Positions 1 to 40,054 of a DNA stretch of 40,054 nt are shown piece after piece. The stretch comes from a virus. The notes under the pieces were generated by a model that saw nothing but the letters and a program-made list of their open reading frames with translations, had not been told where the DNA came from and searched no databases. Position 1 is the stretch's first letter. The number at the start of each line of letters is the position of its first letter. The position numbers and the translations under genes are program-made. Location of the stretch: IMG/VR virus record IMGVR_UViG_3300036944_000610, positions 1 through 40,054 of that record. The stretch is one strand, 5' to 3'.

Positions 1-124
1 GCGGTGTTGGCGGCGATTGCAACGATGGCGACCAAGGAAGACATCAAGGCGCTCGAAAACCGGATGCAGTCATTCGTGACCCGTTCGGAGTTCGACGCGC
101 TTGCGTCTCAGGTCAAGTCGGGCA
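1..124. repeat. Left copy of 124-bp terminal direct repeat
   Basis: Bases 1-124 match 39931-40054. The first 101 bases are identical; differences fall at 102, 106, 107 and 111. All four differences are synonymous in the gene that crosses the junction (Leu CTT/CTC, Ser TCT/AGT, Gln CAG/CAA). The repeat shows that the sequence closes on itself with a unit of about 39,930 bp. Confidence 0.95.
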
Positions 125-252
125 GCATCGGGTCGGCGTTTGATCGCGGGCTGTCGCTGTTCACGCGGGTCGGCGCGGGCATCGCTGTGTTCGTCGCCCT
201 CTGCGGCCTGGTTGCCACCGCCGTGCACTTCTTTGAGCGGGTGCCGAGGTGA
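1..252 (+). CDS. Coiled-coil/C-terminal TM small protein, 3' part
   Basis: This is the 3' remainder of the 112-residue gene that begins at 39844; the true start is not in this copy. Base 1 is the first base of codon 30. The visible part has a helical segment (KEDIKALENRMQSF) and ends in one clear membrane helix (VGAGIAVFVALCGLVATAV) followed by a short charged tail. The stop overlaps the GTG of the next gene (GTGA, 249-252), so the two are probably translationally coupled. A holin-accessory or XhlA-like role is plausible but not shown by sequence motifs. Confidence 0.75.
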   Translation, partial: AVLAAIATMATKEDIKALENRMQSFVTRSEFDALASQVKSGSIGSAFDRGLSLFTRVGAGIAVFVALCGLVATAVHFFERVPR

Positions 253-8788: not shown

Positions 8789-8817
8789 GCGGTTCTCCTG
8801 TAGATCGTTGAAGGGGT

Positions 8818-8856
8818 GGCCCGCCCCGTGAACTCCCCCAACGGGCGGAGCGGGCC
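8818..8856 (-). repeat. GC-rich hairpin upstream of recT-like gene
   Basis: An inverted repeat pairs 8818-8829 (GGCCCGCCCCGT) with 8841-8856 (ACGGGCGGAGCGGGCC), leaving an 11-base loop. In the leftward transcript it lies between the 8863 gene stop and the recT ribosome binding site. No T-tract follows on the minus strand, so it is not a classical terminator. It could stabilise or partly attenuate the distal operon mRNA. Confidence 0.6.
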
Positions 8857-8862
8857 GGAAAC

Positions 8863-9189
8863 TCAGGCCAGCGGCCAGGTGATGTGCGCCAGATAGCCAG
8901 CCACAGCCAGCAGCAGGGCCAGGGCGATGCTTTTGGTATGCGCAGCGGTGCGACGGTGGCGCAGCATGCTTTCCGCGCCCAACTCGGTGCAGCACTCGGC
9001 GGCCTGCGGCTGCACGGGCACGGTGTCGTGCCACTCGCGGGTCGGGTGGCGGCCCTGCTGGTCCAGGCCGGCGGCCATGATGTGCCGGTGCGGGTGCCAG
9101 ATGCTGCCGGGGTTGACCTGGCGGGCTGCGTCAAGGTCGGCCGCAGTCAGCGGGCCGGCGATGGTGTCGGGAGTAGCGAGAGCGGGCAT
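8863..9189 (-). CDS. Hypothetical protein with C-terminal membrane helix
   Basis: 108 residues from ATG 9189, one base past the upstream stop. The first 80 residues are polar (TPDTIAGPLTAADLDAARQV, HPTREWHDTVPV). The last 25 residues (SIALALLLAVAGYLAHITW) form a clear membrane anchor preceded by basic residues (MLRHRRTAAHTK). That predicts a tail-anchored inner-membrane protein with a cytoplasmic head. It is an early gene of unknown role. Confidence 0.65.
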   Translation of the reverse strand: MPALATPDTIAGPLTAADLDAARQVNPGSIWHPHRHIMAAGLDQQGRHPTREWHDTVPVQPQAAECCTELGAESMLRHRRTAAHTKSIALALLLAVAGYLAHITWPLA

Positions 9190-15526: not shown

Positions 15527-15873
15527 TGCGCGGACACGCCCAAATCATCGCCCTGCGGATGCAGCGCAAGGCCCCGAAGACGGTGCACATCTGGTGCGGC
15601 ACCGATGCCCTTGAGGGTTGGAAGGACTGGCACACATCGACCGGCCACGCCGAGGTCGAGATTCAGGACAGCGATGCCCTCTCAAGCCTGGACCTGCGGT
15701 TCACGGTCGGGATGGTGGTGATGGTCAACGGCACCGACCCGTTTCGGGTTGCGGCTGTCCATGCCGGGTGTCTGGCGGCCGGCGCCGCGCGTGTCGTGTC
15801 CGGTGCTGTCGGGATCGACGGCGAGATGGGCCGGCTGATGGACAGCGCAAAGGAGGCAGCATGCACCTTCTGA
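15526..15873 (+). CDS. Hypothetical protein, 115 aa
   Basis: ATG 15526 shares a base with the previous stop (TGATG). The start is basic (RGHAQIIALRMQRKAPKTV), then HIWCGTDALEGWKDWHTSTGHAEVEI and a beta-rich C-terminal half (LDLRFTVGMVVMVNG, DPFRVAAVHAGCLAAGA). No known domain is recognised. It overlaps the helicase start by 13 bases and lies in the replication block. Confidence 0.65.
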   Translation: MRGHAQIIALRMQRKAPKTVHIWCGTDALEGWKDWHTSTGHAEVEIQDSDALSSLDLRFTVGMVVMVNGTDPFRVAAVHAGCLAAGAARVVSGAVGIDGEMGRLMDSAKEAACTF

Positions 15874-16805
15874 CGCCCGACACCATCGACTTCGGGGCGT
15901 ACCTGAAGGAGACGGAAGCCAAGCAACGGGTGCGCCCGGCGAAGGAGTACGTTGCCGAACTGGCGGCCCAGCTTGGCAAGCCGTTTGTGATGCGCGGCCA
16001 GCCGCTGCCCTGGCCGAAGGTGCGCGGCCTGTTCCGCTTCCGCCCCGGCGAAGTCAGCTTGTGGGCCGGCGTGAACGGCCACGGCAAGTCGCTGATGACC
16101 GGCCAGGCCATGCTCGACCTGATCGCCTGCCGGCAGAAGGTGTGCGTGGCCAGTTTCGAGATGAAGCCGCACAGCACGCTGGAGCGGATGCTGCGGCAGT
16201 GGACCTGCTACCCGATTGACGCGGAAGTGGCGCAGCACCCGCAGTACGTCAGCGAGATGCGGACGCTGTATTCCGAGTTCGCCGCAGTGACTGACGGCCG
16301 GCTGTGGTTCTACGACCAGCAGGGCACCGTGTCGTCGGAGCAGATGATCGGCGTGGCCCGCTACTGCGCCAAGGAGTTGGGCATTCAGCACATCGTCATC
16401 GACAACCTGATGAAGTGCGTGCGAGGCGCCGACGACTACAACGGCCAGAAGAACTTCGTGGACGAACTGACCGCCATCGCCCGCGACTACGGCACCCATA
16501 TCCATCTGGTGCACCACATCCGCAAGCTGGAGAGCGAGGCCAAGAAGCCCGACAAGTCGGATGTGAAGGGCGCTGGCGAGATCACCGACATGGTGGACAA
16601 CGTGCTGCTGGTGTGGCGCAACAAGGCCGAGCCGGTCAACCGCAAGCCCACCGACCCAGATGCTGCGCTGATCTGCTGCAAGCAGCGCCACGGCGAGTGG
16701 GAGGGCGGCATCAACCTGTGGTTTGACCGCGACTCGCAGCAGTTCGTAGAGCAGCCCGGCATTGAGCCGATGAACTACAGCCAACGCCACAGGGAGGCGG
16801 CATGA
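15861..16805 (+). CDS. DnaB-like replicative helicase (RecA-fold)
   Basis: 314 residues. ATG 15861 has a perfect AGGAGG (15851-15856) 4 bases upstream. Walker A is GVNGHGKS (70-77), in WAGVNGHGKSLMTGQAML; Walker B ends in HIVIDN (D181). Then come VHHIRKLESEAKKPDKSDVKGAGEITDMVDN and CCKQRHGEWEGGINLWFD, the typical DnaB/Twinkle-like C-terminal motifs. It lacks the long N-terminal DnaB domain (DnaB is about 470 residues). It would unwind the fork after loading by the neighbouring initiator-like protein. Confidence 0.88.
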   Translation: MHLLTPDTIDFGAYLKETEAKQRVRPAKEYVAELAAQLGKPFVMRGQPLPWPKVRGLFRFRPGEVSLWAGVNGHGKSLMTGQAMLDLIACRQKVCVASFEMKPHSTLERMLRQWTCYPIDAEVAQHPQYVSEMRTLYSEFAAVTDGRLWFYDQQGTVSSEQMIGVARYCAKELGIQHIVIDNLMKCVRGADDYNGQKNFVDELTAIARDYGTHIHLVHHIRKLESEAKKPDKSDVKGAGEITDMVDNVLLVWRNKAEPVNRKPTDPDAALICCKQRHGEWEGGINLWFDRDSQQFVEQPGIEPMNYSQRHREAA

Positions 16806-17248
16806 CAAAGAAGGGCGAGGTTCGGTTGGACGCTGGCGCCGTTTTCGTGGCCGCAGCGGCTATTGCCAAGCACCCGGGCATCAAGGCCGAGGGGCTTTCA
16901 GAACTGTGCGGCTGGAGGATGCGGCACACATCGAAGGTGCTGACAGCGGCCAAGAAGGCCGGCGTGGCAGATGTGATCCGCAAGGTCGGGGGGTGCTTCT
17001 GGTACTCGCCTGACAGTTTTGCCGCCGCGCATGCGCAGCACATGCTCGACATGAACAACCGCAGCCAGCAGGCGCAGAAGTTGCGCAACGAGCGCGCCGC
17101 GATGCGCCGCATTGGTGGCCTGCCAGAGAACGAAGCGGACGACGCAGGCGACGCACCGATCCGGCGACTGGTGCCGGCCGGGAGCGCTGGCCCGCTGCCG
17201 TTCAAGTGCCGCGCTGTGTCGAGCGTGTTTGACCTGGGGGTCGCATGA
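16802..17248 (+). CDS. Winged-helix-like hypothetical protein, 148 aa
   Basis: The ATG at 16802 overlaps the helicase stop (ATGA). Residues 10-70 (AAAIAKHPGIKAEGLSELCG, RMRHTSKVLTAAKKAGVADV, then GCFWYSP) read as a winged helix: three helices then a short hairpin. A basic helical segment and a flexible acidic tail follow. DNA binding is likely by fold look-alike; no family name can be given. Confidence 0.65.
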   Translation: MTKKGEVRLDAGAVFVAAAAIAKHPGIKAEGLSELCGWRMRHTSKVLTAAKKAGVADVIRKVGGCFWYSPDSFAAAHAQHMLDMNNRSQQAQKLRNERAAMRRIGGLPENEADDAGDAPIRRLVPAGSAGPLPFKCRAVSSVFDLGVA

Positions 17249-25885: not shown

Positions 25886-26356
25886 GTGGCAACCAAGGGC
25901 GAACTGATCGGGGATGCCTTCGCGGAACTGGCAATCGCCTCCTACGTGTTCGATCTGGAGCCCGAGGAGCAGCAGACCGCGCTGCGGCGCATGGACGCGC
26001 TCATGGCAGTCTGGGAGTCCCGCGGCATCCGCGTGGGCTACGTCTACGGCGGCGGCCTGGCCACCGAGTCGGGCCTGCCGCAGTACGCGCATGAGCCCGT
26101 GGTCGCTGCGCTGGCTGTGCGGCTGGCGCCAGGCTTCGGCAAGGCTGTGAGCGCGCAGACCCTGGCAACCGCCAAGAGCGGCTATGACGGGCTGATGTCG
26201 CGGTCTGCATTCCCGCCCGAGCAGCAGCTGCGCAACCTGCCCAGTGGGTCAGGCAACAAGCCAGACCACTATGTGCAGCAGCCGTTCCTGCCCGTTCCGA
26301 CCGACACGCCGCTTGGCATTGCGCCAGGCGGTGATCTGACATTCACCGGGGGCTGA
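25886..26356 (+). CDS. P22 gp4-like head-completion (tail accessory) protein
   Basis: 156 residues (P22 gp4 has 166). TKGELIGDAFAELAIASYVF, DLEPEEQQTALRRMDALMAVWESRGI, YVYGGGL, then VVAALAVRLAPGFGKAVSAQTLATAKSGYDGL, is the gp4 pattern. A loop and an extended C-terminal tail (PTDTPLGIAPGGDLTF) follow. It binds under the portal after packaging and keeps the DNA in. The start is GTG 25886, 3 bases after the previous stop (ribosome binding site GAAGGG further up). Confidence 0.88.
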   Translation: MATKGELIGDAFAELAIASYVFDLEPEEQQTALRRMDALMAVWESRGIRVGYVYGGGLATESGLPQYAHEPVVAALAVRLAPGFGKAVSAQTLATAKSGYDGLMSRSAFPPEQQLRNLPSGSGNKPDHYVQQPFLPVPTDTPLGIAPGGDLTFTGG

Positions 26357-26822: not shown

Positions 26823-28823
26823 ATGCCAACGATCAATGCAGGCGCATCTACCGCGCTGACCGTCGCCGTCGGGACATACTTGGAGGGCACTGGCGCCGGC
26901 ATGGCTGTCATTGGCCCGGCCGCTGTCGTGGAGCCGCTGACCGCTGGCGATGCGTGGCAAGTCGGCCCGTTCGACCGCGCAACGCTGGTCAGCATCACGG
27001 CCGGCAGCGCGATCACCTACACGGTGAAGGACAACATGCGCGACCCGAGCGAGGCCGACAAGCTGCCGGTGGCGTCGGTCGCTGCAATGCAAGCCCTGGT
27101 GTCAGGGGCTGTGAAACTGAGCAACGCCGGCACCGCAGAAGCCGCGACGGCCAACAACCTGCTGTTGCAGGCCGCTGTGGATGCTGTTGGGCCTGGCGGG
27201 GTGGTGACGGTTGCCCAAAACCAGGGCGTGTGCGAGATCAGCGCCACGGTTTACCACGACAACATCATCGAGATCGGGGCCGGGACCACCGTGAAGCTGC
27301 GCACTGGCAGCACCACGACGATGTTCCGCAACCGGGGGTGGAACCCGACCCGCACGACTGCCACCAGCATGACGGCATCGGGGCGCGTGGGCACCATCAC
27401 GTTCCCGGCCACGCCCGATGATCTGACCGTGGGCAAAACGGTCAGCGTGCTGGGCTACACCACCAGCGGCTACAACGGCGCGCATGTCATCACCGGCCGC
27501 ACCGGCACCACGCTGACCGTGCGCCTGCCTCGCACCCCTGCGCTGACCACTGCGGCTGGCACCGGCACCTGCAGCCCGGTGGACGAGATGATCGGCATGA
27601 CCGGCAAGGGGGCGGTGGACTACAACGAGGCGGGCCAGGCCGCAGACGGCACGCAAAACACCATCGCGGTGATCTGGTGCAACGTGGGCCACTGCTTTGT
27701 GGGTGAGGGGCTATCCGTCCTGAATGCCAAGAAGTTCAACTTCCTGATCTGCGCGTACCGGCATGCGGACGTGGACAACCTGAACGCCGAGACGGCCAGC
27801 GACATCATCCACTTCCTCGGCCCCGGCACCGAGACAGTGTGCACCCGCGTGAAGGGCAGCAGCGGCGACGACTCGCTCGCATTCACCATCGGCGACGTAG
27901 CGTGGTTCAACCTGTCGCGTGGAGACTTCTTCAGCATCCGCGTGGATGAACTGAACACCGACAGCTTGCAAGCCTTGATCCGCATCAGTGGTCACGGCAC
28001 CTGGAAATTCTGGGATGTGGAGCTGGCAAACCTGTTCGGGTCCAGCGTTGCCAGCCCGGTGACGATTGCCGACTTCAGCGCCGATCTGCAGGGCATGGAC
28101 TTCGACCACATCAAGGTGCGCGGGGTCAACTGCGAGACGGCGACCGCCGTGCCGGTGGTGTCAATCTCCACCCTGATCGCAGGCGGCGGTGACCGGCTGG
28201 ACGTGGATGTGACCCAGCTTCCGAGCAACGGCCCGGCGCTGCGCGTCAACGCCAGCACCACCACCGTGCGCAGTGTGCAACTGCGGGTGGCAAACCCCAT
28301 CGACGGCTGCACCACGGGCGCACTGGATGTGTCGGGCGCCACGGTTGCCAGCGCACGAGTCGAGGGTCTGCGTGCCAGCTACGGAAGCAACGTGTTTGCC
28401 GTTTGGGTCAACACCTCCGGCGCCATCACTGAACTGATGGTGAGCGACTGCGAAGTCGGCGGAAGCGGCTCTCGCGTGGTGGCGCATCAAGCAACCCTCG
28501 GCCGCGTGATGATGAACAACATCAGGCATTCGAGCGGGTACTGCGTCTACGAGCAGAACGCCAGCGCAAACGCCAGCATGGTCGTCATGATGAGCAACGT
28601 GCGAGCCAACAGCCTGACCAGCCTTGCCCGGTTTGAGAAGGCCACCACCTTCCTGACAAGCAATGTGCAAGTGCCCAGCGGCGGCGTCAGCGGCAGCGTG
28701 ATCTACGCAAACGGGGCCAGCACGGTGGTGACATGGAGCGGTGATGCGGTTTACACCGGCAACACGGAAAGTTCTCTGATTGGCGGCGCCACCATCAGCA
28801 AGGTTGCCAGCGCCATCGTCTGA
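26823..28823 (+). CDS. Large beta-helix virion protein
   Basis: 666 residues. The middle and C-terminal parts have the turn-by-turn beta pattern of pectate-lyase-like right-handed helices (for example DSLAFTIGDVAWFNLSRGDF, DSLQALIRISGHGTWKFWDV, ANASMVVMMSNVRANSL). The first 150 residues are a separate beta domain (INAGASTALTVAVGTYLEG, GDAWQVGPFDRATLVSITAG). It has no P22-type head-binding domain, unlike the tailspike at 37346. P22 has no such gene between 4 and 10, so this is an additional fibre, or spike, or a decoration of the neck. Substrate unknown. Confidence 0.75.
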   Translation: MPTINAGASTALTVAVGTYLEGTGAGMAVIGPAAVVEPLTAGDAWQVGPFDRATLVSITAGSAITYTVKDNMRDPSEADKLPVASVAAMQALVSGAVKLSNAGTAEAATANNLLLQAAVDAVGPGGVVTVAQNQGVCEISATVYHDNIIEIGAGTTVKLRTGSTTTMFRNRGWNPTRTTATSMTASGRVGTITFPATPDDLTVGKTVSVLGYTTSGYNGAHVITGRTGTTLTVRLPRTPALTTAAGTGTCSPVDEMIGMTGKGAVDYNEAGQAADGTQNTIAVIWCNVGHCFVGEGLSVLNAKKFNFLICAYRHADVDNLNAETASDIIHFLGPGTETVCTRVKGSSGDDSLAFTIGDVAWFNLSRGDFFSIRVDELNTDSLQALIRISGHGTWKFWDVELANLFGSSVASPVTIADFSADLQGMDFDHIKVRGVNCETATAVPVVSISTLIAGGGDRLDVDVTQLPSNGPALRVNASTTTVRSVQLRVANPIDGCTTGALDVSGATVASARVEGLRASYGSNVFAVWVNTSGAITELMVSDCEVGGSGSRVVAHQATLGRVMMNNIRHSSGYCVYEQNASANASMVVMMSNVRANSLTSLARFEKATTFLTSNVQVPSGGVSGSVIYANGASTVVTWSGDAVYTGNTESSLIGGATISKVASAIV

Positions 28824-28852
28824 TCCCATCCCCTGCCGGTGCACATAGGCCA

Positions 28853-30265
28853 ATGACTCAGATCGCCATCATCTCGGGCATCTACGCGGACCAGTCAGGC
28901 GACTACCGCACGAGCTACCCGGAAAACCTGATCCCTGTGCCCAAGGCGCAGGGCGTCAGCAATGGCTATCTGCGTCCGGCTGACGGCATCGCATCCGATG
29001 GAACTGGCCCGGGAATCGGGCGAGGCGGCATCAACTGGAACGGCGTCTTGCACCGCGTGATGGGCTCCAAGCTGGTGCGGATCGACGCGGCCGGCGCAGT
29101 CACAGAACTGGCCGACATCCCGGGCGCCGAAGTCGTGACGCTGGACTACGGCTTCGACCGGCTGGGCATTTCGGCTGGCGGCTCGTTGCACTACTGGAAT
29201 GGCTCGGCGCTCACGACTGTCACCGATCCCGACGCCGGAACTGTGCTGGACCACTGCTGGATTGGTGGGTACTACCTGCTCACAGACGGGGCAAACTTGA
29301 TCGTCACGGAGTTGAACGACCCGACCGCCATCAACCCGCTGAAGTACGGCAGCGCCGAGAGCGACCCGGACCCCATCAAGGCGGTGGACGCGCTGCGCAA
29401 CGAGGCTTACGCGCTGGGCCGGTACACCATCGAGGCATTCCAGAACATCAGTGGCGACCTGTTCCCGTTCCGCAGAATCGACGGCGCCCAGGTGCCGCGC
29501 GGCGTCATCGGGACGCATGCCTATGCGCCGTTCGCCGGCACGTTTGCCTTCCTCGGGTCGGGCCGCAACGAGTCGCCGGCCGTCTACCTCATGCAGCCGG
29601 GTGACACGCTCAAGCTGTCCACGCGCGAGATCGACACCATCCTCGGCGAGTTCACCGAGGCGCAGCTGGCCGCCGCGGTGGTGGAGGCCAGGACCGACAA
29701 GTCCCACCAGCATCTGCTGATCCACCTGCCCGATCGGTGCCTGGTGTACGACGCCGCAGCTTCGCAGCAGATGCAGCAGCCCATCTGGTTCGTGCTGCAC
29801 AGCGGCGTGAGCGACCTTGCGCAGTACCGGGCAAGCGGCCTAGTGTGGTGCTACGACCGCTGGAACGTCGAAGACCCAACCAGCAGCGCATTTGGTCATT
29901 TCGTTGGCAATGTGTCGTCGCACTACGGTCAGGCTGTCGGCTGGCGGTTCGGCACGGCAATGGCCTACAACGGCGGGGCCGATGGCATCGTGCACGATCT
30001 GGAGCTGGTCTGCCTGCCTGGCCGGGCTGCGCTGGGCGTGAATCCGACCGTGTGGCACAGTCACAGCGCGGATGGCGTCACATGGTCGCAGGAGCGGCCC
30101 AAGGCGGCCGGCAAGCAGGGCGAGCGCGCCAAGCGGCTGGCGTGGCGCAGGGCAGGGCGCATCCAGCATGTGCGGATGGAGCGGTTCCGCGGCACCAGCG
30201 ATGCGCAGTTGAGCATGGCTCGGCTGGAGGCGCAGATCGAAGCGCTGGGGGCGGTCAATGGCTGA
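28853..30265 (+). CDS. P22 gp10-like tail (DNA stabilisation) protein
   Basis: 470 residues (P22 gp10 has 472). The signature NLIPVPKAQGVSNGYLRPAD opens the protein. GINWNGVLHRVMGSKL, AEVVTLDYGFDRLGI, VLDHCWIGGYYLLTDG, EAYALGRYTIEAFQN, FPFRRIDGAQVPRGVI and CYDRWNVEDPTSSAFGHFVG follow, the beta-propeller-like repeats of this family. It attaches below gp4 and closes the head, giving a site for the needle and tailspikes. Spacing from the previous gene is 29 bases. Confidence 0.92.
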   Translation: MTQIAIISGIYADQSGDYRTSYPENLIPVPKAQGVSNGYLRPADGIASDGTGPGIGRGGINWNGVLHRVMGSKLVRIDAAGAVTELADIPGAEVVTLDYGFDRLGISAGGSLHYWNGSALTTVTDPDAGTVLDHCWIGGYYLLTDGANLIVTELNDPTAINPLKYGSAESDPDPIKAVDALRNEAYALGRYTIEAFQNISGDLFPFRRIDGAQVPRGVIGTHAYAPFAGTFAFLGSGRNESPAVYLMQPGDTLKLSTREIDTILGEFTEAQLAAAVVEARTDKSHQHLLIHLPDRCLVYDAAASQQMQQPIWFVLHSGVSDLAQYRASGLVWCYDRWNVEDPTSSAFGHFVGNVSSHYGQAVGWRFGTAMAYNGGADGIVHDLELVCLPGRAALGVNPTVWHSHSADGVTWSQERPKAAGKQGERAKRLAWRRAGRIQHVRMERFRGTSDAQLSMARLEAQIEALGAVNG

Positions 30266-30851
30266 GCGCCCGTCAACGCTCACGCAGCCCCTGACCCGGG
30301 CGCAGATCACGGAGATGATCGGCGGCAACCCGCGCCTGGTGCGCTGGTTCGAGGGCGTCGTTCGGGACGTGACCGAGGTCCTGGCGAATGCGGCCTATGC
30401 CAATTCATCGGCAGCAGAGGCGGCCCAGGTGACGGCAGACGCAGCACGGATCGTGGCTGATGAGGCGCTGGCGCTGGTTGAGGATTCGGCGCAAGGCGCG
30501 GACACGGCCATTGCCCTGGCGCAATCCGGGCTGTCGGAGATTGGTCGGCTGTGGGCTGCGCTGGCTACTGCGGGCGGTGGCGGCGGAAACTCTGTTGCGG
30601 TCCCCGTCGATTTCGGTGCCAGCTTCACCGACAAGGCGCAGGCCGTCGTGACGGGGCAGGCGTGGGTGGCCGCAGGCTCTGAAATCGTCGCGCACCTGCT
30701 GACGCCAGCGGGCGCCGACCCGGACGAGATGCGCCTGCTGGACATGCGTACGGTCATCAGCGACATCGTGCCCGGCGACGGGTTCACGGTCACTGTTTAC
30801 AGCGAAACAGAAGCCCAGGGTTCCTACACCGTGGCGTGCATTGGAGTCTGA
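30258..30851 (+). CDS. Putative virion protein with coiled coil, 197 aa
   Basis: The ATG at 30258 overlaps the gp10-like stop by 8 bases. The N-terminal part (TLTQPLTRAQITEMIGGNPR, LVRWFEGVVRDVTEVL) is followed by a long Ala-rich helix (SAAEAAQVTADAARIVADEA), a Gly stretch (GGGGG), then a beta-rich C-terminal domain (VPVDFGASFTDKAQAVVTGQ, DGFTVTVYSETEAQGSYTVA). Helix plus beta end resembles a needle or fibre. It sits where P22 has gene 26 (tail needle), but likeness is architectural only. Confidence 0.7.
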   Translation: MAERPSTLTQPLTRAQITEMIGGNPRLVRWFEGVVRDVTEVLANAAYANSSAAEAAQVTADAARIVADEALALVEDSAQGADTAIALAQSGLSEIGRLWAALATAGGGGGNSVAVPVDFGASFTDKAQAVVTGQAWVAAGSEIVAHLLTPAGADPDEMRLLDMRTVISDIVPGDGFTVTVYSETEAQGSYTVACIGV

Positions 30852-30854
30852 CAA

Positions 30855-32336
30855 ATGGCCGGCGCAAAAATTGCCCTCTCAAACACCCTCGGCGAGCTGA
30901 AGAACGACGGCAACGGCAATGCCCTGGTGGCGCTGCCTGACATCACCACGCCTGCCGCTGTGGGGGCCATCCGGGCCTACCAAGTGGACGATCCTGGCGA
31001 CCGTACCGGGGTGCCGCATCTGAGCAGCTTCGAGGTTGACGAGGACTACCGAGCCCGCGTCGGGCAGGACGTGCTGATCGATGAAGAGCGGTTCAACTAC
31101 ACCGCGCAGAACACCGGCAAGTTCGCCTATCGCAACACCACGGCGACCATCACATGGTCAGCGGCGGGGATGTTGCTGAATGCGTCGGGCATCACCACCG
31201 TTACCACTGGCGCCGGCTTCCAGTCGTACTCAGAAGTGCCGATGGTCACGGCGACCACTCTCTACACCGAGTGCGCCGTCTCGTTCCCTGCGACAACCTG
31301 CCCGACGAACGTGCTGTTCGACTTCGGCAGCATGCGGATTGCCATCACGAACCCCTACGCGCCAACCGATGGCGTGCACTGGCGCATGTCGCCGGCCGGG
31401 CTGGTCGGGGTGATGAACTTCAACGGCACGGAAACGCAAGTCCCCCTGACTGACGCCAGCAACGCGGGGGCGAACTGGGCGCCGACCGTCAACCAGGCGC
31501 ACCGCTTCATCATCGCCATCAGCAACCGCGAAGTCGAGTTCTGGATCGACGGCGAGCTGTGGGGCGTCGGCACAACACCGGCCGGCAACCATGCGCCGTT
31601 CGCTGGCGCCTCTGTGCCCGCCTTCGCTACCCGCTTCGCCATCGCTGGCGGCGCTGCTGGCGCGGTGTACCAGCCGGTAGTGAAGGGCTACGGCGTCAGC
31701 ACTGGCGGCATGCAGGCCGGCGACCGACTCTCAGTGATGATGTCGCGCATGCTGGGCAGCTACTCGGGTCTGAGCGGCGGCACGATGGGTAGCTTGGCCA
31801 CCTACCCGAACAGCACGAACCCAACTGCTGCGGCGCCTTCCAACACCGCGCTGACTGCCAACCTCCCGGCCGGCCTGGGCGGGCAGGGCGCCGTCACTGC
31901 TGCGGTCGCTGCGGCAACCGATGGCATCTGGGGCAGCTACCAAGTGCCAGCCGGCACTGCCGCAGTTCAGGGTCGGAGGCTGGCAATCCGGGGTGTGATG
32001 ATTGACCTGGTGAACTTGGGCGCGGCGGTTGCGACCACGGCCACCACGATTCAGTTCTCACTTGCTTTCGGTCACACCGCTGTGTCGCTGGCAACGGCAG
32101 AAGGGGCTGCATCAAAGGCCGCGCGGCGTGTTGCGCTGGGCTACGCGACCTGGCCTGTCGGCTCTGCTATTGGTTCGCAGCCGCAGGGGGAGCGCATCTT
32201 TGCGGACTTTGGGGACGCGACGATCTACGTCAACCCGGGCGAGTTTGTGGCGCTGGTGGGAAAGTTCTTAGTTGGCACTGCGACGGCATCGCAGGTCATC
32301 AACTTCATCTGGCAACCTGTCTACGGCTGGGAGTGA
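30855..32336 (+). CDS. Tail or virion surface protein, 493 aa
   Basis: ATG 30855 follows GGAG. DVLIDEERFNYTAQNTGKFA, YRNTTATITWSAAGMLLNAS, then a lectin-like beta part (EVEFWIDGELWGVGTTPAGN, RFAIAGGAAGAVYQPVVK) and a C-terminal domain (RRLAIRGVMIDLVNLGAAVA, YVNPGEFVALVGKFLVG). The jelly-roll-like pattern recurs in virion proteins of many proteobacterial phages. It may coat the capsid or bind sugars. Not a P22 gene. Confidence 0.7.
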   Translation: MAGAKIALSNTLGELKNDGNGNALVALPDITTPAAVGAIRAYQVDDPGDRTGVPHLSSFEVDEDYRARVGQDVLIDEERFNYTAQNTGKFAYRNTTATITWSAAGMLLNASGITTVTTGAGFQSYSEVPMVTATTLYTECAVSFPATTCPTNVLFDFGSMRIAITNPYAPTDGVHWRMSPAGLVGVMNFNGTETQVPLTDASNAGANWAPTVNQAHRFIIAISNREVEFWIDGELWGVGTTPAGNHAPFAGASVPAFATRFAIAGGAAGAVYQPVVKGYGVSTGGMQAGDRLSVMMSRMLGSYSGLSGGTMGSLATYPNSTNPTAAAPSNTALTANLPAGLGGQGAVTAAVAAATDGIWGSYQVPAGTAAVQGRRLAIRGVMIDLVNLGAAVATTATTIQFSLAFGHTAVSLATAEGAASKAARRVALGYATWPVGSAIGSQPQGERIFADFGDATIYVNPGEFVALVGKFLVGTATASQVINFIWQPVYGWE

Positions 32337-32803: not shown

Positions 32804-33973
32804 ATGGCACGGCTCACGCTCCAAGACCTACTGCGGCAGAACATTGCAGGCGCGCAGATTCTGGACCCGCTGACGCGGCAGCTTGGGGTCACCGACTGGC
32901 AGATCAGCGGCGGCGGGCTTGACCAGAACGGCAACCCGATGCAGGCCGGCGTGGCAGACCCCGGGAAGCTGGGCGCGCTGCAGGGCTACACCTTCGACTG
33001 GCAGAACACTGGCCCCGAGAACACGGGCACGCTGACTGCCTACGATCCAAGCGGCGTCCAAGTCGGGCAGTACGCGCAGCAGGATCAGAGCATGGGCAGC
33101 GCGCTGGGCGAATTCGCTGCGCTGACTGCTGCTGGGTTCGGTGGCGCTGGCCTGCTGGGCTTTGGTCCGCTTGGCGGCATGCTAGGCGGGCTGGGTGGCG
33201 CTGCCGGCGCTGCAAACCCGACCATTGGTAACGGCGCATTCTTGGGCGAAGCTGCGGCTAGCGGCGCTGGGGTAGGCGGCACTGCTGGTGCAGGAACTGC
33301 CGCGCAAGCCGGCTTCTGGGGCTCGGCGCTCAAGACTGCCGCCCCGGTTCTGGGCTCTGTCGTGGGCGGGCTGATCCAGTCCAACGCAGCAGGCAAGGCG
33401 GCCAACGCACAGACCGCAGCCGCGCAGGCTGGCATCGCGGCCATTCAGAAGGCGCTGGCGCCCTATCAGCAAGCCGGTGTTGGCGCAGTTGGCGGGCAGC
33501 AAGACCTACTCGGCTTGAATGGCCCCGAAAAGCAGCAGGCGGCCATCGCAGCTATTCAGGCTTCGCCGCAGTTCACCTCCATGCAGCAGCTTGGCGAGAA
33601 CCGCATTCTGGCCAACGCATCTGCGACGGGCGGGCTTCGCGGCGGCAACACACAGGGCGCGCTGGCGCAGTTCTCGCCGCAGCTTCTGTCGCAGTTGATC
33701 GACCAGCAGTACACACGCCTGGGGGGGCTCTCAAGCATGGGCGCCAATGCTGCAGCCGGTGTTGGGTCTGCGACTGCCAACCTTCAAGGCCAGATCGGAT
33801 CGGCGCAGGCCGGGCAGGCGCTGGCAAACGGCGGTGCGCTGCAGGGCGCATTCAGCAGCGGGTTTGGTGCGCTGGGTCAGTACCTGGGCGGGCAGCAGCC
33901 CATGCAGGGCATCGCGCCAACGCTCCAGACAAGCACGCCCTTCGGTCAATTCCAACTTGGCGGGGGCTTCTGA
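32804..33973 (+). CDS. Ejection (DNA transfer) protein 1, Gly/Ala-rich
   Basis: 389 residues. ARLTLQDLLRQNIAGAQILD starts it. The central Gly/Ala-rich hydrophobic region (TAAGFGGAGLLGFGPLGGML, GGLGGAAGAA) and KTAAPVLGSVVGGLIQSNAA could insert in membranes. Then come AALAPYQQAGVGAVGGQ-like and SPQLLSQLIDQQYTRLGGLS motifs, typical of phage DNA transfer proteins (P22 gp7/gp20 class). These leave the virion first and help form a conduit across the envelope. It is the first of three adjacent ejection genes. Confidence 0.8.
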   Translation: MARLTLQDLLRQNIAGAQILDPLTRQLGVTDWQISGGGLDQNGNPMQAGVADPGKLGALQGYTFDWQNTGPENTGTLTAYDPSGVQVGQYAQQDQSMGSALGEFAALTAAGFGGAGLLGFGPLGGMLGGLGGAAGAANPTIGNGAFLGEAAASGAGVGGTAGAGTAAQAGFWGSALKTAAPVLGSVVGGLIQSNAAGKAANAQTAAAQAGIAAIQKALAPYQQAGVGAVGGQQDLLGLNGPEKQQAAIAAIQASPQFTSMQQLGENRILANASATGGLRGGNTQGALAQFSPQLLSQLIDQQYTRLGGLSSMGANAAAGVGSATANLQGQIGSAQAGQALANGGALQGAFSSGFGALGQYLGGQQPMQGIAPTLQTSTPFGQFQLGGGF

Positions 33974-35295
33974 TGGGTCCGCAGAACTACACCTTGTCCA
34001 ACGCGCCCGACCCGGGCCAATCGTTCCTGCAGGGCCTGCAGTCGGGTGAGCAGCGGCTGATGCTTCAGCAGCAGCAGGCCGTGCAGATGCAGCAGCAGCA
34101 GGCCGCATTGCAGGCGCAGCAGCGGCGTGAAGAAGCGATTCAGGCGGTCCTGGCCGACCCGAGCGAGCAGAACTATGCGCGGCTGATTTCGACCGACCCG
34201 AAGAACCACGAGGCACACAAGGCGCTGTTCGCTCCGCTGGACGAGAAGCGCAAGAAGGGCGTGGTCTCGGACCTGTTGCAGTGGACGGCCGCTGTCGAAA
34301 ACGGGCACCCAGAACTCGCCGCCGAAGCCATGCGCGCACGGGCCGACATGATGGAGCGCGATGCAGGCGGCGCGAACCCAGAAGCGCAGGCACTACGGGC
34401 GCAGGCTGACGTTGTGGACGCGAACCCGGAACTCGCCGCGCGCCTGTACTTCATGCCGATGCTGTACGCGGGCGGAGCGGCGTCAAAGGACGCCATCGCC
34501 AACTTGACAGCCATGCGCGAAGAGAAGCGCAAGGCGGACGCGGCGCCGGTTGATCTGCGCAAGAAGGAGGCCGACGCGACCACGGCCGAGACGACCGCCA
34601 AGTACGCCGACCGCCAGGCGCTGGCCGATCTGGAAACGAAGGGATGGAACATCAAGGCCATCCAGAACGACATGGAGGTCAAGAAGCAGGCCAACCGCAT
34701 CGCGGTGATGAATGCGCAGACTTCGCGCGCCAACAGCGAATTGCAGCGGCAAGAACTCGCCCTGAAGCTGGACGAGGCCCGCGGCAAGCTGGCCGAGAAG
34801 GTGCGCGAGAAGGTGGCGACAGCTGAGGCCGGGGCATCCAGCATCGACAACATGATGAACACCATCGCACGCATCAAGACGCTGCCCGGTGTTCGTGAGG
34901 TTGTGGGCTCGCTTGAAGGCCAGCGGTTCTATCCGACGCAGGTTGCCGCAGTGGCAAACACGCTGAACCCGTTCACCAGCAGTGGCGACGACCGGGCAGA
35001 TGCAATCGCGCTGATCGACACGCTTGGGTCGCAGGCGTTCCTGGCGCAGATTCCAAGCATCAAGGGCATGGGTGCGCTGTCCAACGCTGAAGGCGAGAAG
35101 CTGCAGTCGGCGTTTCAGAACCTGGGCCGTGCACAGTCTGAAAAGCAGTTCAACGCCACATTGGACGAGGCAACCCGGCTGCTGATGAAGGCGCGCGAGG
35201 GGCTGTCAAAGTCAACCGGGGTTCCGCTTCCCAAGCCCGACACGCCAGCAGCGCCCGGAGCCCGCCCGCCCCTTGAGTCGTTCTTCGACAAGTGA
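33973..35295 (+). CDS. Ejection (DNA transfer) protein 2, coiled coil
   Basis: 440 residues (P22 gp20 has 471). ATG 33973 shares a base with the previous stop (TGATG). Gln-rich coiled coil near the start (MLQQQQAVQMQQQQAALQAQ), long charged helices (TAETTAKYADRQALADLETK, LALKLDEARGKLAEKVREKV), then a helical C-terminal domain (DDRADAIALIDTLGSQAFLA, IPSIKGMGALSNAEGEKLQS) and a Pro tail. Phages of this class carry such helical proteins in the head and eject them with DNA. Family by layout and gene order. Confidence 0.8.
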   Translation: MGPQNYTLSNAPDPGQSFLQGLQSGEQRLMLQQQQAVQMQQQQAALQAQQRREEAIQAVLADPSEQNYARLISTDPKNHEAHKALFAPLDEKRKKGVVSDLLQWTAAVENGHPELAAEAMRARADMMERDAGGANPEAQALRAQADVVDANPELAARLYFMPMLYAGGAASKDAIANLTAMREEKRKADAAPVDLRKKEADATTAETTAKYADRQALADLETKGWNIKAIQNDMEVKKQANRIAVMNAQTSRANSELQRQELALKLDEARGKLAEKVREKVATAEAGASSIDNMMNTIARIKTLPGVREVVGSLEGQRFYPTQVAAVANTLNPFTSSGDDRADAIALIDTLGSQAFLAQIPSIKGMGALSNAEGEKLQSAFQNLGRAQSEKQFNATLDEATRLLMKAREGLSKSTGVPLPKPDTPAAPGARPPLESFFDK

Positions 35296-35302
35296 GCGCG
35301 TG

Positions 35303-37339
35303 ATGGCATTCGATCTTGAGGGCGCACGCAAAGCGGGTTACTCGGATGCCGAGATTGCCGACCTTCTGGCGCGGCGGTTCAACTTCGACATCAAGGGCGC
35401 GCGGAGTGCGGGCTACAGCGACGGCGAGGTGATCGCGCAGCTTGCGGGCAAGGCCGGCATTCCGGGGCAGCAGACGCCCGAGTCGCCAGGGTCAACCGGC
35501 ATGCTTGAGAAGGTGGCCGGCGCTGGTGAGGCGGTGCTGTCTGCTGTGTCCAGCATCCCCGCGTCTATCGGCGCTGCAGGCGGCGCGCTGGGCGCCGCAG
35601 CCGGCGCCATCGCATCGGGGGAGTTCGGCACCAAGCAGGCGGCCGACAAGATTGAACAGGCGGCGGCCGATGCCATGCAGGGCATGACATACACCCCGCG
35701 CACGCAGACCGGCCAGGCCATCATGGGCACGTTGGGCGATGCGATGAACAGCATCGGGTTGCCGGCCATCGGTGCGGCGCAGGGCCTGCGGGCTCCTGCT
35801 GGCGCCATGCGGGCCGGCATGCAGGCTGCGCGCATTCCTGCGGCGGCTGTGCTGGATCGTGCCGCAACTGCAGTGCCTGCGGCTGTGCGTGAACTGCCGG
35901 GCCGCGTGGCTGCTGCTGTGCGGCCTGGGCAGGCACCGACCCCCGGCACGATGGGCAGCGTTGGCGCGGCGGGCCTGGACATGGCGACCCAGCGCACCAC
36001 GGCGGCGCAGTCCCTGCCGGTCCCGGTGCGGCTGACCACTGGGCAGTCCACGCGCAACTTCGAGCAGTTGCGGTTTGAGGGCGAGACGGCCAAAGACCCG
36101 CGCACGGGCGCGCCGCTGCGCGAGTTCGCAGACCAGCAGCGCGCGGACGTTCTTGCCAACTTCGACCGCTTCATCGACATGAGCGGGGCGGAGGCGCCCG
36201 ACCTGCCTGCCGCTGGCCGCTCCGTCACTGGCGCATTGACCAAGAGCGCGGCGCGCGACAAGGCAGAGATTCGTACGGCCTACAAAGAAGCCGAGAAGGC
36301 CGGCGAACTGTCGGCGCCGGTCGAGCTGCGCACACTGGTGGACTACCTGAACGAGTCAGCCCCTGACGCGGCGACCGCGCCCCTGCTGACCACTGCGCGG
36401 AGCTGGGCGATCAAGCTGGGCATTGCCAGGGAAGAGGGCGGCCGGATGGTGCCGAATGCTGCCGAGACAATGCCGGGCGACTCCCTAATGAACGTGCGCC
36501 CGTCTGCCGGCGTGACGCTCAAGACTGCCGAGACGTTCCGCCAGGCGGTCAACCGCAACACCGACTTTGAGCCGACCAACATCCGGCAGGCGACCATCCT
36601 CAAGGGGTTGATCGACCAGGCCACAGAGAACCATGGCGGCGACAAGTACCGGGCCGCTCGGGCGCTGCGCCGCAAGTTCGCCGAGAAGTACGAAGACCGC
36701 GCCGTCATTGCCGACCTCATCACCAATCGGAAAGGCATGGCCGATCCGAAGGTGGCAGTGGACAAGGTGTTTCAGCGGTCCATCTTGCAGGGCTCGCCCG
36801 ACGATGTGCTGTTCTTGCGCCGAACGCTGCAGAGTGCCGGCCCTGACGGTGTGCAGGCTTGGAAAGAGATGCAGGGCGCCACGCTGCGCCACCTGTACGA
36901 CCAAGCCACCCGGGGCGCTGGATCAGACCAGCGCGGGGCGCCGCTTATCTCCGTGGCCGGTCTGGACAACGCAGTCAAGGCCCTGGACAAGAACGGGCGC
37001 CTGCCGATCATCTTCGGCAAGCAAGGCGCCCAGCAGCTGCGCGACATCAACGACATCGCCAAGGTTGTCAACACCGTTCCGCCCGGGGCAATCAACACCA
37101 GCAACACGGCATCGGTGCTGCTGGCTGCGCTGACCGAGGCGGGCGTTACCGGCTCCATGACGGGCCTGCCGATTCCGGTGCTGTCCGGGCTGCGCGCGAT
37201 CACGCTGCAGGTTAAGGACCGGCGCATTCAGCAGCGCGTGCAAGCGGCCATAAAGAACGAGGCCCTGCGCCAGCAGAAACGCGCCCCAGGCAACCCAGGC
37301 GCCCCCATCCAAGCCCCCGGCCCCAACACCATCCAGTGA
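35303..37339 (+). CDS. Ejection protein 3 (gp16-like position)
   Basis: 678 residues (P22 gp16 has 609). ATG 35303, with GTG three bases before it as alternative. The N-terminus holds a tandem pair: FDLEGARKAGYSDAEIADLL (3-22) and FDIKGARSAGYSDGEVIAQL (28-47). A hydrophobic Ala/Gly region (AGAGEAVLSAVSSIPASIGA, AGGALGAAAGAIASGEFG) follows, then a long helical part with VRLTTGQSTRNFEQLRFEGE and EKYEDRAVIADLITNRKGMA. No lytic transglycosylase motif is visible, although this class sometimes has one. It would be ejected with the DNA. Confidence 0.8.
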   Translation: MAFDLEGARKAGYSDAEIADLLARRFNFDIKGARSAGYSDGEVIAQLAGKAGIPGQQTPESPGSTGMLEKVAGAGEAVLSAVSSIPASIGAAGGALGAAAGAIASGEFGTKQAADKIEQAAADAMQGMTYTPRTQTGQAIMGTLGDAMNSIGLPAIGAAQGLRAPAGAMRAGMQAARIPAAAVLDRAATAVPAAVRELPGRVAAAVRPGQAPTPGTMGSVGAAGLDMATQRTTAAQSLPVPVRLTTGQSTRNFEQLRFEGETAKDPRTGAPLREFADQQRADVLANFDRFIDMSGAEAPDLPAAGRSVTGALTKSAARDKAEIRTAYKEAEKAGELSAPVELRTLVDYLNESAPDAATAPLLTTARSWAIKLGIAREEGGRMVPNAAETMPGDSLMNVRPSAGVTLKTAETFRQAVNRNTDFEPTNIRQATILKGLIDQATENHGGDKYRAARALRRKFAEKYEDRAVIADLITNRKGMADPKVAVDKVFQRSILQGSPDDVLFLRRTLQSAGPDGVQAWKEMQGATLRHLYDQATRGAGSDQRGAPLISVAGLDNAVKALDKNGRLPIIFGKQGAQQLRDINDIAKVVNTVPPGAINTSNTASVLLAALTEAGVTGSMTGLPIPVLSGLRAITLQVKDRRIQQRVQAAIKNEALRQQKRAPGNPGAPIQAPGPNTIQ

Positions 37340-37345
37340 GGCACC

Positions 37346-39262
37346 ATGCCCGCAATCGTCGCCCCTCTGCCGCAGTTCTTCGACCTGGCCGGCGCTCCGC
37401 TGGAATCCGGCTCTGTCTACATCGGGGCCGCAGGCGGCAACCCCGAGACCGCACCCGTTTCGGTGTATTGGGATTCCGACCTGACGCAGCCTGCTGCGCA
37501 GCCGCTGCGCACAACGCGCGGCTTTGTGGCGCGCGGCGGCACTCCGGCCCCGGTGTACGTCAGCGGCTTGCACTCGCTGACTGTCAAGCAGCGCAACGGA
37601 GTGCGGGTGTTGTACTCGCCAACCTCACTGGATGCGGATAACGCGACCGCGCTGCGTGATGACCTCGTAAGCACCGCCAGCAGCAAAGGGTCCGCGCTGA
37701 TCGGGTATCTGCCAGCCGGGACAGGGGCGGTCGGTCGGACAGCGCAAGCCAAGTTGCGCGAGGTCGAGGCGTCGGTCGCTGACTTCTTGCCAGCCGGTTA
37801 CGTCACTGACGGCAGCGTCAACTACACGACTCAGATCCAGGCCGCGATTGACTCGGCGCAAAGCGCTGCGCTGGTGACCTATGGAAAGTTCGGCCGCTCC
37901 ATCGCCCGCCTTAAGTTGCCATCGGGCAACTTCAGCGTCAGCGGCCTGACGATCACCCGGCCGCTGAGTTTCGTCGGCAACGGGCGCGAGACAACCATGC
38001 TCAACCTCGTGGCCGGCTCCACGGTGCCATTGATCAATGTGCAGGTTGCCCACGACTCGTTCGACTACTTCGCGTTCGGCATGCCAGCCTGGGTGCTGCT
38101 GTCCGACATGACGCTGACCGCCGACAGCGCAGCCGATGTGCCGGGGCAGGGCGTTGCCCACGGTGTCTACGCCACCGACGCGACCACGAACCCGGTCTCA
38201 ACGTGGCTCGTCATGGAGCGCATGTCCATCGTCGGCATGCCTGCAACTGGAGTCTATGGGTCGTCAATGACAAAGGGCGCGGCGTTCCTGCGCGACGTTC
38301 AGAGCTACTACTGTGGGCAGGACATCCTGCGCGTTTTCTCTTGCGCGGATTGGCGAGTCATCAGCTGCGACTTCGGCGGCGGTAGCGGCACAAACGCATC
38401 CGCGATTGTCAACATCTCCGGCTCGACTGGCCTGGAGTTCACCGACAGCTACTTCTACACCGCGAAGGAGAACGTGCTGACGGCGTTCAACGCCGTGGCC
38501 GACTTCAAGGGGTGCTACTTCGACCTGGCGGGGAAGTCCGCTGTCGCGGCCAACATCAACCGCACGGGCAGCTACGACGCGGTGCTGACTTTCAGCCAGT
38601 GCTTCTTCCGCTGGGCCGGTCAGACCACCGACAACGCCTACCCGACGTTCGACATCACGACCGGCACGGGTGGGCTGATCAAGCTGCTGGCCTGCGACTT
38701 CCGCTCCATCGACAACCCGTTCGGGTCGAACAAGACGAACGGCGACATCATCTTCGCAGCGGCTGGCGTGGGCGTTGGCACGCGGGTCTACATCGACGGC
38801 GCGACCAAGTTCGACCGGGGATTCCCGGGCGGCACTTCGGCCGATGGGCGCAGCGTCACGAACCGCACCGACTACCTGCTCGGCTTCGCGTCCACCAGCA
38901 CAGTGGGCAATACCGGGGCGCAAAAGTCCCTCGGCGCGCTGGCGTCACAGCGCACCACGCTGTCCTATGCGGCCACCGTCAACATCAACGCATCGCTGGG
39001 CAACTTGTTTGAAGTGACGGCGAACAACGGCGTGGCCTTCGCCATCGCTGCGCCGACGAACCCGACGGACGGCCAGCGCATCACCGTGATGACCAAGAAC
39101 ACCAGCGGCGGCGCGCTGGGTGCGATCACGCCGAATGCGGTGTTCAAGCTGACCGGCTCGGCCTGGCCGACCCCTGCGACCGGCACCAACATCAAGCTGT
39201 ACCTGTACTACGACGGCACAAACTGGACCGAAGAAGGCCGGTCTGGCGCCGTCCCGAACTAA
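37346..39262 (+). CDS. Tailspike with P22-type head-binding domain and beta-helix
   Basis: 638 residues (P22 gp9 has 667). Residues 1-95 match the P22 tailspike head-binding layout: PLPQFFDLAGAPLESGSVYI, PVSVYWDSDLTQPAAQPLRT, then GTPAPVYVSGLHSLTVKQRN and VLYSP. From about 155 a pectate-lyase-like beta-helix begins (NYTTQIQAAIDSAQSA, RLKLPSGNFSVSGLTITRPL). The last 90 residues (NINASLGNLFEVTANNGVAF, YLYYDGTNWTEEGRSG) form a fibre-end domain. It binds and probably cleaves a surface polysaccharide of the host; the substrate cannot be read. Confidence 0.92.
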   Translation: MPAIVAPLPQFFDLAGAPLESGSVYIGAAGGNPETAPVSVYWDSDLTQPAAQPLRTTRGFVARGGTPAPVYVSGLHSLTVKQRNGVRVLYSPTSLDADNATALRDDLVSTASSKGSALIGYLPAGTGAVGRTAQAKLREVEASVADFLPAGYVTDGSVNYTTQIQAAIDSAQSAALVTYGKFGRSIARLKLPSGNFSVSGLTITRPLSFVGNGRETTMLNLVAGSTVPLINVQVAHDSFDYFAFGMPAWVLLSDMTLTADSAADVPGQGVAHGVYATDATTNPVSTWLVMERMSIVGMPATGVYGSSMTKGAAFLRDVQSYYCGQDILRVFSCADWRVISCDFGGGSGTNASAIVNISGSTGLEFTDSYFYTAKENVLTAFNAVADFKGCYFDLAGKSAVAANINRTGSYDAVLTFSQCFFRWAGQTTDNAYPTFDITTGTGGLIKLLACDFRSIDNPFGSNKTNGDIIFAAAGVGVGTRVYIDGATKFDRGFPGGTSADGRSVTNRTDYLLGFASTSTVGNTGAQKSLGALASQRTTLSYAATVNINASLGNLFEVTANNGVAFAIAAPTNPTDGQRITVMTKNTSGGALGAITPNAVFKLTGSAWPTPATGTNIKLYLYYDGTNWTEEGRSGAVPN

Positions 39263-39270
39263 GGCGAGCC

Positions 39271-39450
39271 ATGATCGAAGCAATCGGAACCATCCTGGCC
39301 GCGCTGTCCCTCATGGTGCTGGTCGGCGTGCTGATCGTGGCCTATGTGGTGTGGCGGTCGAATAGGCGCATGGATGACGCGGCGGCAGAGATGGCTGCAC
39401 AGGCAAAGCAGGGCAGCGGCGGCGGCGGTGGCCCTAAAGAGCCGGCGTGA
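39271..39450 (+). CDS. Small single-pass membrane protein, 59 aa
   Basis: ATG 39271 is preceded by AGGCGAG. The product starts MIEAIGTILAALSLMVLVGV, one membrane helix (to YVVW), then RSNRRMDDAAAEMAAQAKQG and a Gly run. An N-terminal helix with a polar cytoplasmic or periplasmic tail is common in small phage lysis-cassette proteins. It overlaps the next gene. Exact role unknown. Confidence 0.7.
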   Translation: MIEAIGTILAALSLMVLVGVLIVAYVVWRSNRRMDDAAAEMAAQAKQGSGGGGGPKEPA

Positions 39451-39835
39451 ATCGTGGGCGCTGGCCTGTGAACTGCTGCTGATCGTGGCCGCACGCGAAC
39501 ACCTGTGGCCGCTGGTGCCTGCGCACCTTCAGGGCATGGCGTCCAAGGGCCTGGGCGCGGCGCTGGTGCTTGTACTGCTGTCGATGCTATGGAGACATGC
39601 CCCACGCTCTCGCGTGCTGCTGGGCGTCATTCTGCTGGCCTGCTGGTACTCCCTGCAGACGCTGATCTGTTCCGGCGCCTACATGGTGCAGCCGTGGACG
39701 GTGGAAGCAGGGCATGGCATCTGCAGCGCCCGCCTGGACTTCGATCTAGGCGCCCTGGGCGTGATGCTGTGCGCGTGGTTCGCGTTCTGGCTGTCGGAAC
39801 CTGTAAGACCTGACAGTACCCAACACTTGAAGTAA
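39428..39835 (+). CDS. Multi-pass membrane protein, 135 aa
   Basis: Start chosen at GTG 39428, overlapping the previous gene by 23 bases; a later ATG would lose the first helix. Hydrophobic segments: ALACELLLIVA, KGLGAALVLVLLSMLW, VLLGVILLACWYSLQTLICS and LGALGVMLCAWFAFWL, so three to four membrane helices with a short basic N-terminus. It stands in the presumed lysis cassette. A holin is possible, but four helices with a 30-residue loop are unusual for known holin classes. Confidence 0.65.
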   Translation: MALKSRRESWALACELLLIVAAREHLWPLVPAHLQGMASKGLGAALVLVLLSMLWRHAPRSRVLLGVILLACWYSLQTLICSGAYMVQPWTVEAGHGICSARLDFDLGALGVMLCAWFAFWLSEPVRPDSTQHLK

Positions 39836-39843
39836 GCGGAAAA

Positions 39844-40054
39844 ATGAACGACACCGACCCACAAAGCCGCCCGACAATTTCACTGGATGTTGTCGACATC
39901 CACCTCGACTACCTGCGCAAAGACATGCGCGCGGTGTTGGCGGCGATTGCAACGATGGCGACCAAGGAAGACATCAAGGCGCTCGAAAACCGGATGCAGT
40001 CATTCGTGACCCGTTCGGAGTTCGACGCGCTCGCGAGTCAAGTCAAGTCGGGCA
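39844..40054 (+). CDS. Coiled-coil/C-terminal TM small protein, 5' part (continues at base 1)
   Basis: The ATG at 39844 opens a frame that runs off the right edge and continues at base 1. The joined product is 112 residues. The N-terminal part seen here is hydrophilic and charged (begins MNDTDPQSRPTISLDVVDIH) and looks helical. It starts 8 bases after the stop of the preceding membrane-protein gene, with GGAAAA just upstream as a weak ribosome binding site. The full protein has the layout of small phage XhlA-like lysis-associated proteins: soluble helical N-terminus and one C-terminal membrane helix. Function in lysis is inferred from layout and location only. Confidence 0.75.
   Translation, partial: MNDTDPQSRPTISLDVVDIHLDYLRKDMRAVLAAIATMATKEDIKALENRMQSFVTRSEFDALASQVKSG
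39931..40054. repeat. Right copy of 124-bp terminal direct repeat
   Basis: Second copy of the window's first 124 bases, differing at four positions near its right end. It lies inside the coding region that starts at 39844, and the reading frame is kept across the junction. This fits wrap-around of a circular or circularly permuted phage genome better than a packaged short terminal repeat, because a physical phage terminal repeat would normally be identical in both copies. Confidence 0.95.

What the first reader, a model, noticed from the sequence alone, without database searches (positions are those of the whole stretch)
39271..40054. No recognisable endolysin in a complete genome; lysis genes unknown
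The genome closes on itself, yet no lysozyme, amidase, transglycosylase or peptidase motif is seen. The lysis position holds four small membrane proteins (39271, 39428, 39844 joined to 1-252, 249-452) and one soluble protein (452-670). Either the endolysin is too divergent to recognise, or lysis uses a single-protein or other undescribed mechanism.
Basis: partly seen in the sequence, partly recalled or inferred. Interest (0 to 1): 0.65.

Follow-up and report, generated by a model that had tools for sequence, protein, structure and literature searches.

The report
Phage lysis cassette lacking an endolysin
A complete-looking P22-like phage carries, where its relatives keep a cell-wall-cutting enzyme, only small membrane proteins (one of them clearly a lysis-cassette protein), and the same set recurs in two otherwise unrelated phages that also show no wall-cutting enzyme; this may be an unusual way to burst bacteria, but an unrecognised enzyme elsewhere in the genome is not excluded.

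Summary
The 40,054-bp record closes through a 124-bp near-identical terminal repeat (39931-40054 = 1-124; 4 mismatches, all synonymous), so the unique genome is 39,930 bp. The five cassette ORFs exist, and the gene joined across the ends is real: a homologue in another contig is collinear over its whole length. No muralytic family was found in the cassette or elsewhere with Pfam, PHROGs, NCBIfam, family-specific HMMs or motif scans. The four-TM protein has no hydrolase fold. No spanin pair was seen. Thirteen P22-like relatives carry an endolysin after the tail gene (8 confirmed by Pfam).

The lysis genes are not wholly unknown. 249-452 belongs to a widespread small membrane-protein family; in 15 of 29 other loci a GH24, M15, GH108 or GH19 endolysin lies beside it (14 directly adjacent). 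It is probably the holin. 39428 and the joined gene are known here only from three phages: this one, a podovirus with divergent head genes (also sharing 249) and a siphovirus (also sharing 39271 and the start of 452). None shows an endolysin at that site.

Best reading: a mobile, membrane-protein-only lysis cassette. How the wall is broken is inferred, and a divergent endolysin elsewhere remains a serious rival.

The parts
1..124 (.). left copy of the terminal near-direct repeat (circular closure); matches 39931-40054
   Evidence: 101 bp exact, then 4 mismatches, all synonymous in the joined gene
39931..40054 (.). right copy of the terminal near-direct repeat
39271..39450 (+). 59-aa small membrane protein, one TM, C-terminal GGGGGPKEPA
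   Evidence: 60-aa homologue with the same C-terminal motif in siphovirus contig L065; a short ORF ending GGGGGPKEPP in L060
39428..39835 (+). 135-aa four-TM membrane protein with conserved SKGLGA and GICSAR-x-x-FD-x-GA motifs; start overlaps the end of 39271
   Evidence: about 50% identical homologues in G016/L060 and G017/L065 only; AlphaFold 4 helices (pLDDT 74, pTM 0.66); no PDB or BFVD fold match with E <= 0.001; codon position 2 more conserved than position 3
39844..40054 (+). 5' part of the 112-aa joined gene (coiled-coil region plus C-terminal TM); use 39844-39930, then continue at base 1
   Evidence: homologues of the whole protein in G016 (48%) and G017 (38%); profile matches coiled-coil PDB chains 5apz and 6h9l
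1..252 (+). 3' part of the joined gene, with the C-terminal TM segment
249..452 (+). 67-aa 1-2-TM protein, probable holin; 4-bp overlap with the joined gene
   Evidence: 30 relatives in viral contigs; an endolysin of GH24/M15/GH108/GH19 type lies within 3 kb in 15 of the 29 other loci, directly adjacent in 14; beside DUF5675 and an Rz-like gene in Curvibacter phage PCA1
452..670 (+). 72-aa protein of unknown role, last gene of the cassette
   Evidence: first 24 residues 67% identical to a short ORF at the same place in G017; no database match
37346..39262 (+). 638-aa tail protein directly upstream; marks the place where relatives carry the lysis cassette
   Evidence: N-terminal region shared with tail proteins of relatives
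35273..37339 (+). 688-aa ejection-type protein without the transglycosylase-like N-terminus seen in some relatives
   Evidence: same type of N-terminus in L048/L049, which carry a separate GH24 endolysin

Best explanation
39271-670 is the phage's lysis cassette, of a membrane-protein-only type: a small TM protein and a four-TM protein (39271, 39428), a coiled-coil protein with a C-terminal TM (joined gene), a holin-type protein (249-452) and a small accessory protein (452-670), with no classical muralytic endolysin and no recognisable spanins. SHOWN: the genes, the closure, the recurrence of the core in three phages, the lysis-cassette family of 249-452, and the lack of any endolysin hit. INFERRED: 249-452 permeabilises or depolarises the inner membrane, with the joined protein as partner or timer; the wall then fails either because the conserved four-TM protein interferes with wall synthesis (amurin-like) or because the damaged membrane releases or activates host wall hydrolases. 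Which of the two is not known.
For: Position: relatives carry holin and endolysin right after the tail gene. 249-452 family: endolysin gene within 3 kb in 15 of 29 other loci, 14 directly adjacent. 39428 and the joined gene recur in G016 (different head genes, 24-27% identical) and in siphovirus G017; with G017 the only other match is a 54-residue stretch of a methyltransferase, so the module travels as a unit. No endolysin family hit in the three phages. Most of the window's late virion genes have counterparts in relatives that also carry a separate endolysin, leaving the cassette genes as the distinctive late set. The four-TM model shows no hydrolase fold.
Against: No experiment. G016 and G017 are incomplete contigs (31.8 and 32.0 kb). 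HMM searches miss some real endolysins. Position-analogous small-ORF plus four-TM pairs occur beside normal endolysins in L048, L049 and G008, although they are not homologous, so 39271/39428 may be accessory and not a substitute for the enzyme. Tailed phages are described as commonly using holin plus endolysin (PMC9327680).
Confidence: 0.5

Rival explanations
1. The phage has an endolysin too divergent to be recognised, encoded by one of the unassigned genes outside the cassette, and works as an ordinary holin-endolysin phage.
For: Pfam missed an M15-motif endolysin in relative G010. Several window genes have no family (4140-4709, 11778-12560, 15469-15873, 16802-17248). Even in a curated spanin study the endolysin was named in only 46 of 58 u-spanin phages (PMC6139136).
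Against: Most unassigned late genes have counterparts in endolysin-bearing relatives and look structural; the unassigned early genes are not in the late operon. HMMs seeded from endolysins of these same phage groups found nothing in the window.
Confidence: 0.33
2. The genome has lost its own endolysin and lysis uses enzymes of the host or of a co-resident prophage after holin triggering.
For: The order joined gene-249-452 looks like the order coiled-coil/TM gene - M15 endolysin - 249-like gene of L079 with the enzyme gene missing. The phage has an integrase.
Against: The same enzyme-free order is conserved in G016, so it is not a fresh deletion. No host is known.
Confidence: 0.12
3. Assembly artefact: the endolysin was lost where the contig was closed.
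For: The contig ends lie inside the cassette, and the repeat has 4 mismatches, so two strains may be mixed.
Against: The joined gene and the next gene are contiguous and in the same order in an independent contig, G016/L060.
Confidence: 0.05

Closest known systems
Holin-endolysin(-spanin) lysis cassettes of P22-like and other tailed phages (e.g. Pseudomonas phage PfAn1, IMG/VR relatives L048/L049/G005/G008)
   Same: Position after the tail gene; holin-type small membrane proteins; overlapping late genes
   Different: No GH24, M15, GH108, GH19 or transglycosylase gene and no Rz/Rz1-like pair found in the window
Lysis cassettes with 249-452 homologues (L073, L076, L078, L079, L084, L090, L094, L096, L098, L101, L102; Curvibacter phage PCA1)
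   Same: Homologous 1-2-TM protein, often overlapping or abutting its neighbour
   Different: There it lies next to an endolysin (or DUF5675 in PCA1) and often next to Rz-like genes; here its neighbours are the coiled-coil/TM gene and a 72-aa protein
Single-gene lysis proteins (amurins) of ssDNA/ssRNA phages (phiX174 E, Qbeta A2, MS2 L)
   Same: Would break cells without a muralytic enzyme, if 39428 is the effector (inference)
   Different: No sequence match seen; here several genes in a dsDNA tailed phage, plus a holin-type protein

Membership tests
Holin-endolysin lysis cassette | a peptidoglycan hydrolase gene | tested here: not met
   no hit with Pfam, PHROGs, NCBIfam, custom HMMs or motifs; sensitivity limited
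Holin-endolysin lysis cassette | a holin-type small membrane protein | tested here: met
   249-452 family beside endolysins in 15 of 29 other loci; activity not tested
Holin-endolysin lysis cassette | location at the end of the late operon after the tail gene | tested here: met
   same place as in relatives
Holin-endolysin lysis cassette | spanins (o-spanin lipoprotein in any frame) | tested here: not met
   no lipobox ORF in the cassette except a segment inside 39428's own TM; the scan found o-spanins in G005 and G007 but none in L050, where an Rz1-like ORF is visible by eye, so its sensitivity is partial. 91 of 677 phages in one survey also had none found (PMC6139136)
Single-gene lysis / amurin | one protein suffices for lysis without muralytic activity | not testable with these tools
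   needs expression assay
Single-gene lysis / amurin | sequence similarity to known amurins | tested here: inconclusive
   no named amurin family among PHROGs/Pfam/NCBIfam hits of 39428 or the joined gene; amurin sequences were not compared directly
P22-like podovirus | P22-type portal, gp4-type adaptor, gp10-type head closure, ejection proteins | tested here: met
   portal tblastn to P22-like phages; PHROGs Ad3, Hc3 and DNA-ejection families; coat and scaffold homologous to relatives annotated P22-like

The most novel reading that the evidence does not exclude
A mobile lysis module of tailed dsDNA phages that bursts the host without any muralytic enzyme, the conserved four-TM protein (39428 family) acting as a wall-synthesis inhibitor alongside a holin.
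Probability: 0.15. Interest if true: 0.85.

Novelty: new variant of a known kind. Interest (0 to 1): 0.5.

Why it matters
Tailed phages are described as using a holin together with an endolysin. A conserved, horizontally moving cassette with a holin-type protein but no enzyme would make lysis by a tailed phage without its own endolysin directly testable, and could reveal a new protein that targets the cell wall. If a hidden enzyme is found instead, it would be a new, currently undetectable endolysin family.

Tried and rejected
Scans for 39428-family relatives in bacterial genomes found none with 2- and 3-sequence profiles; plasmids: no match for 39428 or the joined protein; phage records: no match for 39428 or 452. 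The joined protein's best phage-record hit, under a 'lysozyme' annotation, had E = 0.6 and was set aside as chance. Fold of the joined protein's homologue: low confidence (pLDDT 50), not used. Profile comparison of 39428 with the position-analogous four-TM proteins of L048/L049/G008: no detectable homology. Considered 2246-3112 as an endolysin: it is an Acb3 CBASS inhibitor. Considered the gp4-like adaptor 25886-26356: P22 gp4 is listed as a virion-associated lysozyme (PMC5380687), but for entry, and the gene is shared with relatives that also carry an endolysin. Considered a frameshift fusion of 39271 and 39428: both have normal starts in relatives, so coupling by overlap is simpler. Literature searches for tailed phages without endolysin gave nothing directly on point.

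Full report
CHECK OF THE OBSERVATION. The record's first and last 124 bases are a near-direct repeat: 101 bases are identical and 4 of the remaining 23 differ, all synonymously in the gene that spans them. Collapsing the repeat gives a circular genome of 39,930 bp and restores one reading frame, 39844-39930 plus 1-252 (112 aa); joining base 40054 to base 1 directly would break it. Homologues confirm it: contig IMGVR_UViG_3300046002_004916 (L060/G016) encodes the whole protein uninterrupted (48% identity, residues 2-112) and follows it at once with the 249-452 homologue. The other ORFs are as described.

WHAT THE PHAGE IS. It is a temperate P22-like podovirus: portal, scaffold, coat, gp4-type adaptor, gp10-type head closure, ejection proteins, integrase and repressor. 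Its nearest annotated phages share about 57% portal identity (MW202475, MW202867); IMG/VR relatives share up to 77%.

NO ENDOLYSIN FOUND. Pfam, PHROGs and NCBIfam scans of the cassette and of the unassigned genes gave no muralytic family. Motif scans of all six frames gave nothing credible in the window, while the same patterns picked up M15, GH24 or GH19 proteins in relatives. HMMs seeded from endolysins of these phages and iterated over about 100 loci found none in the window, G016 or G017. A lipobox scan found no o-spanin in the cassette. Sensitivity is imperfect: Pfam missed an M15-motif endolysin in G010 and the transglycosylase-like N-terminus of G007's ejection protein.

WHAT RELATIVES HAVE AT THIS PLACE. 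Thirteen relatives carry an endolysin after the tail gene. Pfam confirms GH24 in L048 and L049, M15 in G008, G011 and L055, and GH108 in G005, G006 and PfAn1; MW202475 and MW202867 are so annotated; L056, G010 and L050 show M15 or GH19 motifs. One relative, G007, has a holin followed directly by Rz/Rz1-like genes and no separate endolysin seen, but its ejection protein has a transglycosylase-like N-terminus. The window's ejection protein lacks that part, as do those of L048 and L049, which have a GH24 endolysin instead.

249-452 IS A LYSIS-CASSETTE PROTEIN. A profile of it found 30 loci. Besides G016 itself, 15 of 29 carry a GH24, M15, GH108 or GH19 endolysin within about 3 kb, 14 of them directly next to or overlapping the 249-like gene, often with Rz/Rz1-like genes near; some of these loci are near-identical pairs (L073/L074, L076/L077, L079/L080). 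The other 14 gave no hit with these HMMs; several are fragments, and other enzyme types were not tested. In Curvibacter phage PCA1 the homologue precedes a DUF5675 gene and an Rz-like gene. So a holin-type role is the best inference, not shown by assay.

THE MODULE MOVES. 39428 and the joined gene have relatives only in G016 and G017 among everything fetched. G016 is a podovirus whose head genes are only 24-27% identical to the window's; G017 is a siphovirus in which, apart from the cassette, only a 54-residue stretch of a methyltransferase matches. The 59-aa gene ends GGGGGPKEPA; G017 has a 60-aa homologue and G016 a short ORF with a similar end. G016 shares 249-452; G017 has a different two-TM gene there and the start of 452. 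Codon position 2 is more conserved than position 3 in 39428 (0.72-0.74 against 0.45-0.53), so the protein is under selection. Both contigs are incomplete, so their endolysins could lie in missing parts, although the region after the tail genes is present.

HOW IT MAY WORK. AlphaFold gives four membrane helices for 39428 (pLDDT 74, pTM 0.66), with no PDB or viral fold match at E <= 0.001. The joined protein matches coiled-coil structures by sequence (5apz, 6h9l) and has a C-terminal TM; its fold model was poor. The most economical reading is a complete lysis cassette in which 249-452 attacks the membrane, the joined protein assists or times it, and the wall fails either through the four-TM protein or through host enzymes. 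The last step is inference. Against it, similar small-ORF plus four-TM pairs, with no detectable homology, stand beside normal endolysins in L048, L049 and G008, so the pair need not replace the enzyme.

VERDICT. A hidden endolysin is the main rival.

Noticed in passing
window 2246-3112 (-): Strong Pfam match to Acb3, a CBASS inhibitor (PF25187, E = 1.2e-65): an anti-defence gene next to the integrase.
   Followed up: no
L032/L033 (G007) 32909-33766 and 28469-31189: A P22-like relative has a holin directly followed by Rz/Rz1-like genes with no endolysin between; its 906-aa ejection protein has a transglycosylase-like N-terminus (by eye, Pfam silent).
   Followed up: partly
L062 (Curvibacter phage PCA1) 3852-4289: A DUF5675 protein sits in the endolysin position between a holin-type gene and an Rz-like gene; it may be a lysis enzyme.
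   Followed up: no
window 30855-32336 and L068 13098-14576: A 493-aa virion-type gene is 77% identical to one in G016 although head genes are only 24-27% identical: recent exchange.
   Followed up: no
L048 ~13770-14403, L049 ~14230-14739, L035 ~8580-9103: A Gly/Lys-rich small ORF overlapping a four-TM gene lies after the tail gene in several relatives, analogous in place but not detectably homologous to 39271/39428.
   Followed up: partly
window 102-111 against 40032-40041: Four synonymous differences between the two terminal repeat copies suggest two strains in the sample.
   Followed up: partly
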